DNA from: Listeria ivanovii subsp. londoniensis
GTDB taxonomy: Bacteria > Bacillota > Bacilli > Lactobacillales > Listeriaceae
DNA: 64,000 nucleotides
Reading direction: 5' to 3'
Assembly: GCF_000763495.1 (NCBI RefSeq)
Contig: NZ_CP009576.1
Span: forward strand, 1,808,001 to 1,872,000
In this document: positions 51,428 through 58,785 of the stretch, in pieces
Layout of the letters: each line of letters opens with the position of its first letter
How positions within the stretch are numbered: the first letter of the stretch is position 1
The notes under the pieces: generated by a model
What the model saw: the letters and a program-made list of their open reading frames with translations, nothing else
Told to the model about the DNA's origin: nothing
Databases searched by the model: none
Made by a program: the position numbers and the translations under genes

Positions 51428-54130
51428 TTATTTTAATTTTCCACGTAATACCATTGGTAAGATTCCACCATGACGATAATAGTCAATTTCAACTTCTGAG
51501 TCAAACCTTGCCAGTGCTTTAAAAGTAAACTGGCTACCATCTTCTCGAGTAGCTGTTACTTGGATAATATCTCTAGGAACTACATCTTCGCCTATTTCTA
51601 CTTGAAGACTTTCAGAACCAGTTAATCCAAGTGTCTCTGCATCTTCACCTGGTTGGAATTGAAGTGGTAAAACACCCATCATCACTAAGTTCGAACGGTG
51701 AATCCGCTCATAACTTTTTGCTAAAACCGTTTTTATTCCAAGTAAATTAGTTCCTTTGGCTGCCCAGTCACGAGAGGATCCCATTCCATAATCATCGCCA
51801 GCAAGCACCACTAAACCAGTGTTATTTTCAATATACTTACGAGATGCATCATAAATTGACATCACTTCACCTGTTGGCCAGTAGGTTGTATAACCGCCTT
51901 CTGTTCCAGGAGCGATTTGATTTTTAATACGAATATTCGCGAAAGTTCCGCGCATCATCACATCATGATGTCCACGGCGAGAGCCATAGGAGTTAAAGTC
52001 ACGAATAGCAACACCTTGATCTTGAAGGAATTTTCCGGCTGGTGTATCTTTTCCGATTGCTCCGGCTGGTGAAATATGATCAGTTGTAACAGAGTCCCCA
52101 AATTTGCCGATAATCCGAAGATCAGATAAAGCTTCTACTTCTCCTGCCTCTTTTGCTAAATTATCAAAGAAGGGTGGATTGGCGATATATGTGGAATCCT
52201 CATCCCATTTATAAAGCGCATCTTCTGTTGTTTCGATAGCATTCCAAGCTGCATTTTCATCAAACACGTGGGCATATTGCTCACGGAAAAGTTCTGGGGT
52301 TACTGTTTCTTGAACAAGTGCTTTTACTTCCTCTGAACTTGGCCAAATATCATCCAAAAAGATATCTTCTCCATTATTTCCACGTCCGATTGGTTCTGTT
52401 AACATATCTACATTTGTTGTTCCAGCAAGTGCATAAGCAACAACAAGTGGTGGTGATGCTAAGAAGTTTGCTTTTACAAGCGCATGAATTCTACCTTCAA
52501 AGTTACGATTTCCACTTAAAACAGCAGAAACAAGTAAATCGTTTTCTTGAATTGCTTCTTCAATTTCATCTTTTAGTGGTCCGGAGTTACCAATACATGT
52601 TGTACAACCATAGCCAACTAAATCAAAACCGAGCTTTTCCAGATAAGGAAGTAACCCAGCTTTTTCTAAATAACCAGTAACTACTTTGGAGCCAGGAGCT
52701 AAGGATGTTTTGACAAATTTTGGTACTTCTAAGCCTTTTTCGACTGCTTTTTTAGCAACTAAACCAGCGCTTAACATGACGTATGGATTAGAAGTATTCG
52801 TGCAACTTGTAATCGCCGCAATCGCAACAGAACCAGTCTTCATTGTTGACTTATCACCATTACCAAAAGTCACGGTAACTTCTTTGGCTAAACTTGATTT
52901 ATCTAGTCCAAATCCTTGGTTGCCAGCTTTAGCAGTAAGTGATTCACGGAACGTATCTTTCATTTTAGAAAGTGGAATCAAATCTTGTGGCCGTTTTGGT
53001 CCAGCTAGATTTGGTTCAATCGTAGAAAGATCCATTTCGACAGTTTGTGTATAATTAGGTTCGACTTTTTCTGGTGTAAAGAATAAATCGTTGGCTTCTA
53101 AATAAGCTTCTACTAATTCGATCTGTTCTGCATCACGACCAGTTAATTTTAAATAATTTAACGCTTCTTTATCCACTGGGAAAAAGCCACATGTTGCACC
53201 ATATTCTGGCGCCATGTTCGCTACAGTAGCCCTATCAGCAAGTGGTAATGTTGCAACGCCTGGACCATAGAATTCTACAAACTTACCAACTACTTTTTGT
53301 TCCCGTAATACTTGTGTTACTTTTAAGGCGAAATCAGTTGCTGTTGCTCCATTTGGTAATGCTCCGGTTAATTTGACACCAATAACTTCTGGGATTGGGA
53401 AATAAGACGGTTGTCCGAGCATCCCTGCTTCTGCTTCGATACCACCGACACCCCAACCTAGCACACCGATGCCATTAATCATCGTTGTATGGCTGTCTGT
53501 TCCAACAAGTGAATCAGGGAAAGCAACAAATTCACCGTCCGCTACTTCATTTGCAATCACAACATTAGCTAAATATTCCAAGTTAACTTGATGGACGATG
53601 CCAGTCGCTGGCGGAACTGCTCGGTAGTTATCAAATGCTTTTTGTGCCCAATTTAAAAATTGATAGCGTTCCATATTTCGTTTGAACTCAAGATCCATAT
53701 TAATTTTTAAAGCTTCTGGATTGGCATAGCTGTCGACTTGTACTGAATGATCGACTACTAAATCAACGGGGATTTCTGGATTAATCTTCTCAGGATCGCC
53801 ACCGAGGTCCGCCATTGCTTTTCGTAATGAAGCTAAATCAACAACAGCTGGAACTCCGGTGAAATCTTGCAAAATCACTCGAGCAGGTTTAAACGGAACT
53901 TCTCCGTCATTACCATCTTTGGACCAATGCGCAAGATCTTCAATATGAGTATCTTTAATCACTCTACCATCTGCTTGCCGTAGAACTGATTCTAGTAAAA
54001 CACGAACAGAGTATGGTAATTTCTCAATGTTTGTAAGCTTATCCTCTTCTAAGGTTTTAAGTTTGTAATAATGATACGTTTTGTCGTTTAGCTTGAATGA
54101 TGCTTTTGCTTTTTCTTTCCAATTAGTCAT
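51428..54130 (-). CDS. citB: Aconitate hydratase (AcnA type)
   Basis: 900 residues; interconverts citrate and isocitrate through a [4Fe-4S] cluster. Cluster cysteines in [13 protein letters not shown] and [12 protein letters not shown]; swivel domain with GRNFEGRIH and [19 protein letters not shown]. Listeria has an incomplete TCA cycle, so it works in the citrate to 2-oxoglutarate branch that makes glutamate. I chose the ATG giving [12 protein letters not shown], behind GAAGGAGGA; 48 upstream codons are open but not coding-like. Single gene with a SigmaA promoter and a CcpC-type dyad. Confidence 0.96.
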
Positions 54131-54176
54131 CCACGTTTCCTCCTTCAGTTCTTGAAACGATTGGTCTCTCTTACCT

Positions 54177-54205
54177 ATTGTACTGAAAAAACAGCGATAA
54201 GTAAA
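54177..54205 (-). promoter_or_regulatory. citB promoter
   Basis: Minus-strand TTTACT (54200-54205), 17-base spacer, TACAAT (54177-54182). The transcript should start near 54171. Confidence 0.75.
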
Positions 54206-54243
54206 CAAAGAGAATCTGTTATATTTCAATAACTTTTTCTTAT
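54197..54243. promoter_or_regulatory. CcpC-type operator (dyad and half-site) at citB
   Basis: ATAA-N7-TTAT (54229-54243) is centred about 65 bases before the predicted start, and a lone ATAA (54197-54200) lies about 27 bases before it. This is the geometry described for CcpC, the citrate-responsive LysR-type regulator, at the citB promoter in Bacillus. Confidence 0.75.
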
Positions 54244-54245
54244 AA

Positions 54246-54278
54246 CAAAAAAACGAATGACAACTTAATGTCATTCAT
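54246..54278 (-). terminator. Terminator after the RsbR paralog
   Basis: Minus-strand GAATGACA/TGTCATTC perfect stem with a six-base loop followed by GTTTTTTT. Confidence 0.85.
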
Positions 54279-54285
54279 CTTTATT

Positions 54286-55089
54286 TTATATTCCTAAGTG
54301 CTTAAGTGCTTGTTCTAAGGAGCCAAATGAATCCAATTTGGAGATATTCGAACCTACCTGAATCGTCCGTTGAGCAAAACTCGGCTGCATACCAGAAAGG
54401 ATTGGTATCAAACCAATTAATTTAAAGGATTGAATCATATCTTCCATGTGTTTCGTAGCTAAATCGTCTTTTAAAATCGCGCTAGAAAAATCAATCACAA
54501 TGGTGTCGATATTTAATTTATCAGCAGACTCTATCGCTTTTTCTTTCATAAAATAACCACGATCATCATCTAATGTACCAACAATTGGCAGTACTCCAAC
54601 CGTTGCAGTGATTGGGATAATTCGCGTTGATAATTGAATGATTTCTTTACGCTGCTCTGCTACTTTTTTACGATTTTCTTGCATGAATCCTTCTAGCACA
54701 CGTTGTTGAATCGAAGTTAATATGTCTTTTACTTCCATCATAAATTGTATAATATCCATATCTGTGTACAAATTCGCTTCTTGCTCTTTCCACAACATTA
54801 GTTTTGCAAGAATTAATTTGTCTACTTCGCTCATGTGCTGGTGAATTTTCTTTATGTCTGTTTTATCATTGAAACGCCTTTTGCCAATTGTATTAAAATC
54901 ACGCTCTTTTGCACCAGTTATCGAATCTATAATCATGGCGCAAGAGTTCATACTTAATGAACGAATAGATTCCTCTTCTTCACCAGCATCAAGTCGTAAC
55001 TTATATTCATCTGTTTTCGTATAATATTCTTCATAAAAAGCTTCGATTAATTCTTCACGGCGGCTAATTAATATTTGACTAATTTGCAT
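54286..55089 (-). CDS. RsbR-family stressosome paralog with STAS domain
   Basis: 267 residues. N-terminal ~140 residues are a helical non-haem-globin-like sensor (REELIEAFYEEYYTKTDEYK), then a linker helix and a STAS domain (about 155-265: VGVLPIVGTLDDDRGYF, TIVIDFSSAILKDDLATKH). RsbR proteins build the stressosome with RsbS and sequester the kinase RsbT until stress releases it to switch on SigmaB. Here the two threonines RsbT phosphorylates in RsbR align with Asp175 (GTLDDD) and Asp209 (LKDDLA). AAGGAG precedes the ATG. Last gene of the SNF2-YflT-RsbR operon. Confidence 0.9.
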   Translation of the reverse strand: MQISQILISRREELIEAFYEEYYTKTDEYKLRLDAGEEEESIRSLSMNSCAMIIDSITGAKERDFNTIGKRRFNDKTDIKKIHQHMSEVDKLILAKLMLWKEQEANLYTDMDIIQFMMEVKDILTSIQQRVLEGFMQENRKKVAEQRKEIIQLSTRIIPITATVGVLPIVGTLDDDRGYFMKEKAIESADKLNIDTIVIDFSSAILKDDLATKHMEDMIQSFKLIGLIPILSGMQPSFAQRTIQVGSNISKLDSFGSLEQALKHLGI

Positions 55090-55101
55090 AATATCTCCTT
55101 C

Positions 55102-55524
55102 TTACCTTGCAAAAATCAAAATATTGTCTGCATGTAAATTTCCAATCATTTTATCGATCTGTTCTTCAGTTAAATCAAAATCCTCTAATAATTTTTTGAC
55201 AGATTTATCATCTGTCTTAGAGAACCATTTGGCAAATGGACCTGCTGCATATAAAGCACCATATTTCGGATTATATGCTTGTGGAATAACAATTGCGCCA
55301 CTAAGTGATTGTAGTATTCCAGAAATAATACCAAATGCTTCTTCATTTACTGGACGTTCGATTTCGATGTTCTCTTTTTCCGCTAATGTTTCTAAGTTTT
55401 TATTATGTTTCGATTTAGCTAAAACGGAGATATCCTCTTTCTCATAGCCTTCACTTACTAACTTTTCGATGATTTCCTCTGCTGCACCGACATTTTGAAC
55501 TGCAAATACTTCCCATTTTTTCAT
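55102..55524 (-). CDS. YflT/GSP17M-domain general stress protein
   Basis: 140 residues. N-terminal YflT-like fold (WEVFAVQNVGAAEEIIEKLV, GYEKEDISVLAKSKHN) followed by a hydrophobic-glycine stretch (FGIISGILQSLSGAIVIPQA) and a C terminus LHADNILIFAR. Members are SigmaB-dependent stress proteins of unknown activity. Its ATG overlaps the SNF2 gene's stop (TAATG), and the RsbR paralog follows 12 bases later; all three are cotranscribed. Confidence 0.85.
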   Translation of the reverse strand: MKKWEVFAVQNVGAAEEIIEKLVSEGYEKEDISVLAKSKHNKNLETLAEKENIEIERPVNEEAFGIISGILQSLSGAIVIPQAYNPKYGALYAAGPFAKWFSKTDDKSVKKLLEDFDLTEEQIDKMIGNLHADNILIFAR

Positions 55525-58500
55525 TATTTTTCAGCCCTTCCATTATCCATTTGTAAGATTTGTTTAATTTCTTCTGTGCTAAGTTTTCCTAGCATTTGTT
55601 CACCTGGTTGGATAAGTTCATCCACCAGTGCTTGTTTTTTCTTTTGTAAATCAAAAATTCGTTCTTCAATGGTACCTTTTGTAATCATTCGGAAAACTTG
55701 GACAACACGTTTTTGACCAATTCGGTGAGCCCGTCCAGTTGCTTGTTCTTCTACAGCTGGATTCCACCATAAATCATATAAAATCACTGTGTCGGCACCA
55801 ACTAGATTCAGCCCTGTTCCTCCAGCCTTTAAAGAAATCAAGAAAATATCGTTCTCCCCTTCATTAAAAGAATTAACCATATCCAATCTTGTTCTCGATG
55901 GTGTTTTACCGTCCATATAGAAGAATGTTTGACCATCTTCTTCTAGCTTACGGCGAATTATCGCAAGCATTCCAGTGAACTGAGAAAAAATCAAGATTCG
56001 TTTACCATTTTCTCTCGCTGTTTGTATTGTATCAAATAATTGTAGTAGTTTACCAGATTCACCTTGATAATTTTCGACAAAAAGACTAGGATCACAGCAA
56101 ATTTGGCGTAAACGGGTTAACCCCGCTAATAATTTAATCCGCTCTTCAGATGCATTGCCACTACTTTCTTCCAAGTCAGCTTGAATTTTTTCTAAATAAG
56201 CCAAGTAAATCGTTTTTTGTTCATCGGTCAATTCAGAATAAAGGTTCGTCTCAATTTTATCAGGTAATTCTTTTACTACATCTTGTTTAAGACGACGAAG
56301 TAAAAATGGTCGAATCATTTTCGCAATATTTTCGTATGGAATTTCTTTAAATTTTCGTAGTGATGGGAAAAATCCTGGCATTAATGTTTGATAAATCGCC
56401 CAAAGTTCATCAATGCTATTTTCAAGAGGTGTTCCACTTAATGCAAAAACATGGTTCCGTTTCAATGCTCGAACAGCTTGTGAAGCTTTTGTATGATAAT
56501 TTTTGATGGCTTGTGATTCATCAATAATAACACTTGAAAAGGCGACATCCGCGAGATTCAAAATATCTTGACGAAGCGATGGATACGAAATTAAATAAAC
56601 ATGGCCACGTTTCATTTCCTTCATTTCAGCCATGCGCGACTCTTTTGTTCCATGTAAAACAGTAACAGGAATCATTGGTGCAAATTTTTCAAGTTCGCTT
56701 TGCCAATTGTATAGTAGAGAAGCTGGTGTAACGATTAATACTGGTTTCAAGTTCGGATTATTTTCTAATTCAGATGCTAAGAAACTAATGGTTTGAACTG
56801 TTTTCCCCAGTCCCATGTCATCGGCTAAAATCCCACCAAGATTGTATTTAGCAAGTGACTTCATCCACTCAAACCCTGTCAGTTGATAATCACGTAATTC
56901 CGCTTTTAACCCTCTTGGTAAATCAAAACTGTCTTCCGATTGTGTAGTTATATCCGTTAATAATTCGCGAAATGACCGGCTAAATTTATGATGTTCATCT
57001 TGCGTTCCCGCTCCTAGAATATCATAAATTTGCATCCCTCGATAAAGTGGGACTTGCATATTACTTTGGACATCTTTTTTACGAACTTCAAGCATCTGGA
57101 GAACGTCTTCCATTTGTTTATAGTTTTCTGATTCTAGTGATAAGAAACGACCATTTTTCAAACGATGATAGCTTCGTTTTTCGCGTAAAGATTCTAGGAC
57201 ATTTTGGACTTCTTCTTCAGGTATACCTTTAAAATCAAAGGTCACGGAAAGATAATCATTGTTGCCAGAAACATCTAATGTTGTTACAGGACGAACATTA
57301 TCTTCCACCATTTCTTCCAGTCCATCTTCCATATATATTTCCGCAAATTCTGCAAGCTTTGGAATCGTCCGATAATAAAACTGATATAGATCTTTTTCTT
57401 GCTTGTTCACTACCATTTTTGTTCCAGAAAAATGAACAGGTGCGCTTTCTAAAATATTCATCACTCGTGTTTCTTTTTCAACATCACGAATCATGATTTT
57501 TTCGTTTTCTTCCTCTGTTGTAATAAATGGGTCGAATTGTTGATTGCCATAATGATACTCTAGTCGCAAAGTATGTTCGCCGTACTCTAATGCGATATAG
57601 AGTTTGCAGTCAAGTGGTTGTTGCGTGATACGACCTTCAATCGAATCGTCTAATTTTAGTTTTCCGCTCTTTTGTAAAGCTGGTAAAACATAAGAAACGA
57701 CTTCACTTAATTGCGACTCAGAAAATTGCACGACTTCATTTTTCGTTACTTTATGAAACTCTATCAGTGGTTTTAAAGATTCCCAGACTTCATGTGTTGG
57801 AATAAAAAAGGTACCATCAAAAAATAGGAGTTGATATGCTTCCAAAAAGATTGCTTGCTGTATATCTTCCATTTCCAATTGGTACTTATCATCAGCACTT
57901 TTTCTAAGTTCAAAAATGAAATCTAATTGCTCATGACGAACAGCTAGACCGCGGTATTTAATATCTTCCACTCGATCTTTCATAAGAATACACATCGTAT
58001 CACGTTCAGACAAGAGCTCTAATAAGCCACTTGCCATACTTGGCGGAATCGTTAAGTTCTTTTCTTCTGCATAAGATTTATTCCAATAAAAAGTATCCGT
58101 ATCATACATTTTCGCAATTTCACTAATTTGAAGCAGCTTTTCTAGAATTTTTTTATCCGCTTCTGCAAAATAATGTTCGTTTGGGTCATAAGCAAAATTC
58201 TTCGTAAATACGAGCCACTGCCGGTCACGGACTGCAGCAAGAAATGTATTCATGTTTTTCACGACATACGTTCGTTCTGTCCCAACCTTCACTTCGATAG
58301 TCATGATATGGCTAAAATCATCTGGCTTCAGACGAATAATATATTGCGTCTGAAGCGGTGTTTTATTCGTGTTATCTTCTTCTACATCGAGTTGTTGCGC
58401 CATATTTTGTTGAAAAAGGGATAGAAGCGTATTGGATTCTTGTGTAAGAATTCGATTTTTAAAATCTTGTTTAGCTGCTTTTTGTTTTTCTTTTTCCATT

Positions 58501-58742
58501 TTTAAATGTGTCGCATAAATATGCTTGCAAATCGCATTTAACTGAAAATCTGCACAACTGCACGCATAATTTTCACTTCCAGCATCTTCCACTACATTTT
58601 GATCAATAAAATATGTAAGGAAATGACCAGTTGCGTCCTTTTCATAAAACTGAATAATTTCTCCGTCTTCCATCAATTTTTTCCCGGCCTGCTTAACACT
58701 ATATGGAATCATTTTATTTTGAACTGCGGTAAAGTGCTCCAT
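55524..58742 (-). CDS. SNF2-family helicase with SWIM zinc finger
   Basis: 1072 residues. N-terminal SWIM finger (ENYACSCADFQLNAICKHIY, near residue 50-70), a long middle domain found in bacterial SNF2 proteins, then the ATPase: Walker A ADDMGLGKTVQTISFL, DESQ box SVIIDESQAIKN, and helicase C motif V/VI LKAGGTGLNLVGA and GRAHRIGQKR. Predicted double-stranded DNA translocase; target unknown. The ATG giving MEHFTAVQNKM lies 8-10 bases after GGGAGGAAG. First gene of the stress operon. Confidence 0.9.
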   Translation of the reverse strand: MEHFTAVQNKMIPYSVKQAGKKLMEDGEIIQFYEKDATGHFLTYFIDQNVVEDAGSENYACSCADFQLNAICKHIYATHLKMEKEKQKAAKQDFKNRILTQESNTLLSLFQQNMAQQLDVEEDNTNKTPLQTQYIIRLKPDDFSHIMTIEVKVGTERTYVVKNMNTFLAAVRDRQWLVFTKNFAYDPNEHYFAEADKKILEKLLQISEIAKMYDTDTFYWNKSYAEEKNLTIPPSMASGLLELLSERDTMCILMKDRVEDIKYRGLAVRHEQLDFIFELRKSADDKYQLEMEDIQQAIFLEAYQLLFFDGTFFIPTHEVWESLKPLIEFHKVTKNEVVQFSESQLSEVVSYVLPALQKSGKLKLDDSIEGRITQQPLDCKLYIALEYGEHTLRLEYHYGNQQFDPFITTEEENEKIMIRDVEKETRVMNILESAPVHFSGTKMVVNKQEKDLYQFYYRTIPKLAEFAEIYMEDGLEEMVEDNVRPVTTLDVSGNNDYLSVTFDFKGIPEEEVQNVLESLREKRSYHRLKNGRFLSLESENYKQMEDVLQMLEVRKKDVQSNMQVPLYRGMQIYDILGAGTQDEHHKFSRSFRELLTDITTQSEDSFDLPRGLKAELRDYQLTGFEWMKSLAKYNLGGILADDMGLGKTVQTISFLASELENNPNLKPVLIVTPASLLYNWQSELEKFAPMIPVTVLHGTKESRMAEMKEMKRGHVYLISYPSLRQDILNLADVAFSSVIIDESQAIKNYHTKASQAVRALKRNHVFALSGTPLENSIDELWAIYQTLMPGFFPSLRKFKEIPYENIAKMIRPFLLRRLKQDVVKELPDKIETNLYSELTDEQKTIYLAYLEKIQADLEESSGNASEERIKLLAGLTRLRQICCDPSLFVENYQGESGKLLQLFDTIQTARENGKRILIFSQFTGMLAIIRRKLEEDGQTFFYMDGKTPSRTRLDMVNSFNEGENDIFLISLKAGGTGLNLVGADTVILYDLWWNPAVEEQATGRAHRIGQKRVVQVFRMITKGTIEERIFDLQKKKQALVDELIQPGEQMLGKLSTEEIKQILQMDNGRAEK

Positions 58743-58785
58743 TAACTTTCTTCCTCCCAAAAACCGTCCATTACTCTAAACTACT

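What the first reader, a model, noticed from the sequence alone, without database searches (positions are those of the whole stretch)
54286..55089. RsbR paralog in which both RsbT-phosphorylated threonines are aspartate
Seen: aligning the STAS domain with B. subtilis RsbRA, VGTIDTER becomes VGTLDDDR and VVDTMVA becomes LKDDLAT, so the two Thr positions are Asp175 and Asp209. Known: phosphorylation of these Thr in RsbR primes and then limits RsbT release. Inference: this paralog may behave as a permanently 'phosphorylated' stressosome subunit that tunes or destabilises the complex, rather than a switchable sensor.
Basis: partly seen in the sequence, partly recalled or inferred. Interest (0 to 1): 0.7.

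Follow-up and report, generated by a model that had tools for sequence, protein, structure and literature searches.

The report
Listeria stress-sensor subunit lacking phosphorylation sites
This gene encodes RsbR3, an already described extra subunit of the Listeria stress-sensing complex, in which the two amino acids normally switched by phosphate are replaced by permanently charged ones; that is real and conserved, but similar cases exist, and what the charges do is untested.

Summary
The gene (minus strand, 54286-55089, 267 aa) is RsbR3 (Lmo1642 type) of a Listeria sensu stricto genome. Asp175 and Asp209 align without gaps with T175 and T209 of RsbR1 and are Asp in 15 of 15 Listeria orthologues found. 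The predicted fold matches full-length Listeria innocua stressosome RsbR.

Published work already states that Listeria RsbR1 paralogues lack these threonines, that the paralogues together slightly attenuate SigB, and that RsbR3 co-purifies with membrane RsbR1. T175E and T209E in RsbR1 change stressosome assembly. Against a locked switch: B. subtilis YtvA carries Glu at both sites and is a working light sensor; 5 of 134 sequences from other Bacilli are doubly acidic; both sites are the first residue of a helix, where acidic residues can serve structure alone.

Most likely RsbR3 is a non-phosphorylatable auxiliary subunit that dilutes or dampens RsbR1 signalling, probably gained in the sensu stricto ancestor between a YflT-domain gene and aconitase. 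My searches found no paper calling its aspartates natural phosphomimetics. The idea is testable but not very surprising.

The parts
54286..55089 (-). rsbR3 (Lmo1642/Lin1683 type), RsbR-family stressosome subunit, 267 aa
54565..54567 (-). codon for Asp175 (position of RsbR1 T175), first residue of predicted helix 175-192
   Evidence: codon place computed by hand from the ORF coordinates
54463..54465 (-). codon for Asp209 (position of RsbR1 T209), first residue of predicted helix 209-224
   Evidence: codon place computed by hand from the ORF coordinates
54367..54369 (-). codon for Arg241 (position of RsbR1 T241)
   Evidence: codon place computed by hand from the ORF coordinates
55102..55524 (-). 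YflT-domain protein gene directly upstream, 12 bases before rsbR3
   Evidence: (PF11181, 29.3 bits, cut-off 26.2)
55524..58760 (-). SNF2-type helicase-like gene (name recalled from its motifs), sharing one base with the YflT gene; probably the same transcript (inferred)
54249..54282 (-). terminator-like hairpin with T run directly after rsbR3
   Evidence: 2 terminator-like sites, the same hairpin on both strands; 0.8 expected

Best explanation
The gene encodes RsbR3, a known RsbR-family subunit of the Listeria stressosome (shown: sequence, synteny; predicted: fold). It has a globin-like N-terminal domain and a STAS domain (predicted). It joins mixed complexes with RsbR1 (published for the L. 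monocytogenes orthologue, one of three pull-downs). RsbT cannot phosphorylate it at the two canonical sites (follows from sequence). Inferred: it acts as an auxiliary, attenuating subunit. By taking RsbR places in the shell it lowers the number of RsbR1-RsbS-RsbT units that can release RsbT, and its fixed negative charge at 209, like RsbR1 T209E, further weakens RsbR packing, while the charge at 175 resembles the already primed state. It may still sense something through its N-terminal domain.
For: Identity and conservation. RsbR1, RsbS and RsbT are encoded together in the same genome (RsbT named from recall of its family). Purifying selection: pN/pS 0.087 in the STAS part, 0.109 in the linker, 0.216 in the N-terminal part (14 orthologues). 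Published: the paralogues together attenuate SigB and RsbR3 is found with membrane RsbR1 (PMC7705745); RsbR1 T209E gives a 1:1 instead of 2:1 RsbR:RsbS shell and T175E breaks the RsbS ring (PMC12154155); a phosphomimetic substitution at the second Thr of RsbRA markedly suppresses the response in B. subtilis (PMC5542698); rsbR3 in place of rsbR1 behaves like loss of rsbR1 in the one assay and background used (PMC12153296).
Against: Reporter expression and acid adaptation were not significantly changed by the paralogues (PMC8942246). The attenuation was slight and was measured on loss of four paralogues together, so RsbR3's share is unknown. RsbR3 was seen in one of three pull-downs. T209A, not only T209E, alters stoichiometry, in the opposite direction, and RsbR1 T209A raises SigB activity, so absence of the Thr has effects of its own. 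In the preprint T209E resisted oxidative stress like wild type, which does not look like damping. Acidic residues at helix starts need no phosphate meaning.
Confidence: 0.5

Rival explanations
1. The two Asp are structural only. Once the phospho-acceptor was no longer needed, the first residue of the two helices was free to become any residue that suits a helix start (Asp, Glu, Pro, Ala), and Asp has no phosphomimetic role. RsbR3 works through its N-terminal domain and STAS contacts.
For: AlphaFold puts 175 and 209 at the first residue of helices 175-192 and 209-224. Among the 176 survey sequences, the acidic share of those without Ser/Thr is 34 of 79 at 175 and 26 of 70 at 209, against 79 of 166 at 176 and 118 of 169 at 237, also early helix positions. 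Double acidity in 5 of 30 sequences that lack Ser/Thr at both sites, 3.9 expected from independence. Pro, Ala, Arg, Asn and His also occur at the sites.
Against: Other early helix positions are not acidic: 23 of 167 at 210, 0 of 174 at 236, 0 of 171 at 258, 11 of 160 at 259. Over all 134 sequences 1.4 doubly acidic are expected and 5 seen, though losses of Thr at the two sites go together. The acidic share at the two sites (60 of 149) exceeds that of the whole STAS sequence, 0.13. Asp is kept at both sites in 15 of 15 orthologues, but most STAS columns are invariant in this set.
Confidence: 0.27
2. RsbR3 is a switchable sensor of the YtvA/RsbL kind: it needs no phosphorylation of its own, and a signal at its N-terminal domain is passed through the shell to RsbR1/RsbS, raising output under an unknown stress.
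For: YtvA has Glu at both sites (PDB 2mwg), is described as permanently incorporated (Jurk et al. 2013, title seen in a reference list) and is a positive light regulator. Listeria RsbL lacks both Thr in the rows read (N/E or H/E) and senses light (PMC7358398). Structural match of RsbR3 to L. innocua RsbR, turret domain included.
Against: The published sign of paralogue action in Listeria on salt stress is attenuating, and on acid none was seen. No stimulus for RsbR3 is known to me. YtvA and RsbL use a LOV/PAS domain, which is not found in RsbR3.
Confidence: 0.2
3. RsbR3 is a decaying paralogue with no present function.
For: The N-terminal part evolves faster than the STAS part; 10 of 25 genus genomes lack it; in one of 15 the gene is interrupted around a run of N, with a stop in the stretch after it (L024, L035, L040), which may be an assembly matter.
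Against: Open over its full length in 14 of 15 orthologues; pN/pS below 0.22 in each part; same place in all 15.
Confidence: 0.03

Closest known systems
RsbR3 / Lmo1642 of L. monocytogenes and Lin1683 of L. innocua
   Same: Same length (267 aa is given for Lmo1642 in PMC3019169); published as a stressosome paralogue, and the paralogues as lacking the phosphorylatable Thr. That Lmo1642 lies beside aconitase is recalled.
   Different: I did not fetch Lmo1642 or Lin1683 by name.
YtvA of B. subtilis (PDB 2mwg)
   Same: STAS subunit of the stressosome with acidic residues at both sites (Glu/Glu) and a basic residue at 241 (Lys).
   Different: LOV light domain instead of a globin-like turret; RsbR3 scores 76 bits against the YtvA family cut-off of 250.
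RsbL (Lmo0799) of Listeria
   Same: Stressosome paralogue without either Thr (N/E or H/E in the rows read).
   Different: PAS/LOV domain; known light sensor; Thr at 241 in this genome (Leu in one other row, L239).
RsbR1 T175E and T209E of L. monocytogenes (PDB 9o5l, 9o4h)
   Same: Laboratory versions of an acidic residue at each of the two sites; sequences seen, effects in PMC12154155.
   Different: Single substitutions in the main subunit RsbR1; Glu, not Asp; not both together in the parts I read.
RsbS of the same genome
   Same: Has a natural Asp at the position of T175.
   Different: Single STAS domain and a phosphorylatable Ser at the second site.

Membership tests
RsbR family (RsbT co-antagonist, stressosome subunit) | C-terminal STAS domain of RsbR type | tested here: met
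RsbR family (RsbT co-antagonist, stressosome subunit) | N-terminal non-heme globin-like turret domain | tested here: met
RsbR family (RsbT co-antagonist, stressosome subunit) | Assembles with RsbS and RsbT in stressosomes | not testable with these tools
   RsbS and RsbT genes are present; published co-purification of the orthologue with RsbR1 and Prli42
RsbR with canonical RsbT phosphorylation sites (RsbR1/RsbRA type) | Thr at positions 175 and 209 of RsbR1 numbering | tested here: not met
   Asp at both
RsbR3 (Lmo1642/Lin1683) orthologue group | High identity over full length and same gene neighbourhood in Listeria sensu stricto | tested here: met
   75-96% identity in 13 other full-length orthologues; SNF2-YflT-rsbR3-citB in 15 of 15 genomes that have the gene. 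The name of the group comes from papers, not from a fetched Lmo1642
YtvA/RsbL light sensors | LOV domain and family score over cut-off | tested here: not met
   76 bits against cut-off 250; no PAS/LOV domain at E up to 1
Natural phosphomimetic subunit | Asp reproduces the effect of phosphate at 175 and 209 | not testable with these tools
   needs reconstitution; acidity at the sites is confounded by helix-start position

The most novel reading that the evidence does not exclude
Listeria sensu stricto gained, between a YflT-domain gene and aconitase, a dedicated always-charged stressosome subunit. D175 imitates the primed state and D209, possibly paired with R241 in place of the Thr209-phosphate-Thr241 bridge proposed for RsbR1, holds the subunit in the conformation that cannot keep RsbT. 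Its dose in the shell would then set the ceiling and baseline of the SigB response without any phosphorylation.
Probability: 0.15. Interest if true: 0.55.

Novelty: already known. Interest (0 to 1): 0.3.

Why it matters
If RsbR3 does act through fixed charges, it would be a natural counterpart of the laboratory T175E/T209E mutants and would show that bacteria tune a phosphorylation-switched shell by mixing in subunits frozen in one state. It would give a simple test of whether phosphate at RsbR, as opposed to RsbS, sets stressosome output. If not, the finding is a reminder that Asp at a lost Thr site, especially at a helix start, is not by itself evidence of phosphomimicry.

Tried and rejected
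Salt-bridge covariation: among 134 non-Listeriaceae sequences Ser/Thr at 209 goes with Ser/Thr at 241 (85 with, 10 without; against 9 and 30; Fisher p about 1e-13, not corrected for relatedness), but among the 39 without Ser/Thr at 209, acidic 209 does not go with Lys/Arg/Gln at 241 (6 of 10 against 12 of 29, p 0.46). So D209-R241 pairing has no support from covariation. No model coordinates were at hand to measure the distance (one search lists no model file).

SigB promoter near the gene: the pattern GTTT-N14-17-GGGWAT (recalled) occurs twice in the window, neither within 20 kb of the gene, with 1.3 expected. Sigma-70-like scan of 54100-55800: 4 found, 6.6 expected. No promoter claim is made.

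Place of origin: a FastTree of 185 STAS sequences puts RsbR3 beside Listeria RsbR4 (support 0.86), deeper nodes weaker (0.59-0.83). The best non-Listeria blastp hit is a T/T/T protein at 37% (L102). The published equation RsbR3 = RsbRC could not be tested, as no named RsbRC was at hand.

Earlier statement in print: searches listed no paper that I saw describe the acidic residues of RsbR3 as natural phosphomimetics. I looked at listings and passages; the alignment figure of PMC8942246 (Fig 1B) is not held, so the Asp may be visible there. Most subscription papers are not held. A key YtvA paper (PMC1595380) is not held.

A first script crashed on a file name; redone.

Full report
What is there. 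The ORF lies on the minus strand at 54286-55089 and encodes 267 aa. The genome is 3.05 Mb in one contig and the window is a piece of it. It is a Listeria of the sensu stricto group (group name recalled): orthologues in named records are L. immobilis (81% in the best segment), L. marthii (82%), L. cossartiae (79%) and L. farberi (77%). No tool named the species of the window. By length, paralogy and kin the gene is RsbR3, called Lmo1642 in L. monocytogenes (PMC3019169 gives 267 aa; passages) and probably Lin1683 in L. innocua (PMC9237128; passages; pairing inferred).

Check of the sites. Against RsbR1 of the same genome, T175 faces D175 and T209 faces D209; the phmmer match to solved Listeria RsbR is ungapped over 123-261. 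T241 faces R241. In 14 of 14 full-length orthologues D175 and D209 are invariant, and a fifteenth, interrupted around a run of N in its record, keeps both (L024). Synonymous change is common (pS 0.55-0.63) and pN/pS is 0.087 in the STAS part, 0.109 in the linker and 0.216 in the N-terminal part. Because most STAS columns are invariant in this set, invariance of the two Asp is real but not specially strong.

Own paralogues. At the three positions RsbR1 has T/T/T, RsbS D/S/T, RsbR2 R/D/Q, RsbL N/E/T, RsbR4 D/Q/L and RsbR3 D/D/R. So the four paralogues of this genome that lie away from RsbR1 all lack both Thr. The same is in print for L. [quoted passage not shown]

Wider family. I compared 176 STAS stretches (180 fetched, 4 with stops dropped), 134 of them from outside the Listeriaceae. 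Of the 134, 80 have Ser/Thr at both sites, 5 are acidic at both and none is Asp/Asp; among the 42 other Listeriaceae rows, RsbR3 not included, none is doubly acidic. Parsimony on a FastTree of 185 sequences counts 5 changes of the doubly acidic label, RsbR3 included. If acidity at the two sites were independent over all 134, 1.4 doubly acidic would be expected against 5 seen; among the 30 with no Ser/Thr at either site, 3.9 are expected and 5 seen. The excess is thus mostly that both Thr are lost together. One of the 5, L179, is a YtvA: it matches PDB 2mwg at E 2e-103, and 2mwg itself reads LTEERF and VNEQTA at the two sites, that is Glu/Glu, with Lys at 241. YtvA is a light-switched positive regulator (PMC3944199; passages). 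A doubly acidic subunit is therefore neither unique nor necessarily locked.

What is known of function. PMC7705745 (passages and two sections): loss of all four paralogues slightly raises SigB activity with and without salt; RsbR2, RsbR3 and RsbL were found with RsbR1 in membrane but not cytosol pull-downs, RsbR3 in one of three experiments. PMC8942246 (passages): paralogues are dispensable for the acid response; RsbR1 T209A raises basal SigB activity. PMC12153296 (passages): rsbR3 in place of rsbR1 behaves like loss of rsbR1 in the assay used. PMC12154155, a preprint (parts 1-3 of 6): RsbR1 T175E breaks the RsbS ring and could not be made in the living strain, T209E gives a 1:1 RsbR:RsbS shell, T209A gives 23:7 dimers, and T209E resists oxidative stress like wild type; its main text does not mention the paralogues. 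PMC5542698 (passages): a phosphomimetic at the second Thr of RsbRA suppresses the response. PMC9237128 (passages): a phosphate bridge between T209 and T241 is proposed to lift helix 3 and exclude RsbT.

Gene neighbourhood and history. The gene sits 12 bases after a YflT-domain gene, which shares one base with the end of a SNF2-type helicase gene, and is followed by a terminator-like hairpin and aconitase. The 15 of 25 Listeria genomes that have rsbR3 all have it in this place. In the other 10 the YflT and aconitase genes are near neighbours without it. In three of these ten the interval is longer; in the two that I read it holds a gene of about 200 codons, shown in one of them to carry a transglycosylase SLT domain. 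A gain in the sensu stricto ancestor is the simplest reading; loss in the others is not excluded.

Verdict. The phosphomimetic idea is plausible because of the T209E and T175E work, but nothing here separates it from helix-start chemistry or from a YtvA-like sensor role. No paper that I saw describes the two Asp as natural phosphomimetics, with the limits told under Tried and rejected. On checking against the calls I kept all odds as first written.

Noticed in passing
window 54131-54282: The longest aconitase ORF begins at 54274, inside the terminator-like hairpin after rsbR3; the real start is probably nearer 54130 (inferred, not tested).
   Followed up: no
L280:872-1486 (-), L275:897-1496 (-): In some Listeria without rsbR3 the interval between the YflT gene and aconitase holds another gene, a transglycosylase SLT-domain protein (domain shown for L280 only; L281 has a gap of like size, not read).
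   Followed up: partly
L004:1471-1836: RsbS carries a natural Asp at the position of RsbR1 T175, so an acidic residue there is normal in the core scaffold.
   Followed up: no
L008 and L221-L232: RsbR4 keeps an acidic residue at position 175 (Asp in 12, Glu in 1 of 13 read) while position 209 drifts (Pro, Gln, Ala, Arg).
   Followed up: partly
survey alignment: Ser/Thr at 209 and Ser/Thr at 241 go together strongly across 134 Bacilli sequences (85/10 against 9/30), in line with the published T209-T241 bridge idea; relatedness not corrected.
   Followed up: partly
L282-L287: In three Listeria genomes without rsbR3 the YflT-like gene matches in two pieces, as if its reading frame were interrupted.
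   Followed up: no
L140, L141, L150: Several Bacilli encode long proteins (open frames of about 520-630 aa) that end in an RsbR-type STAS domain with both Thr.
   Followed up: no
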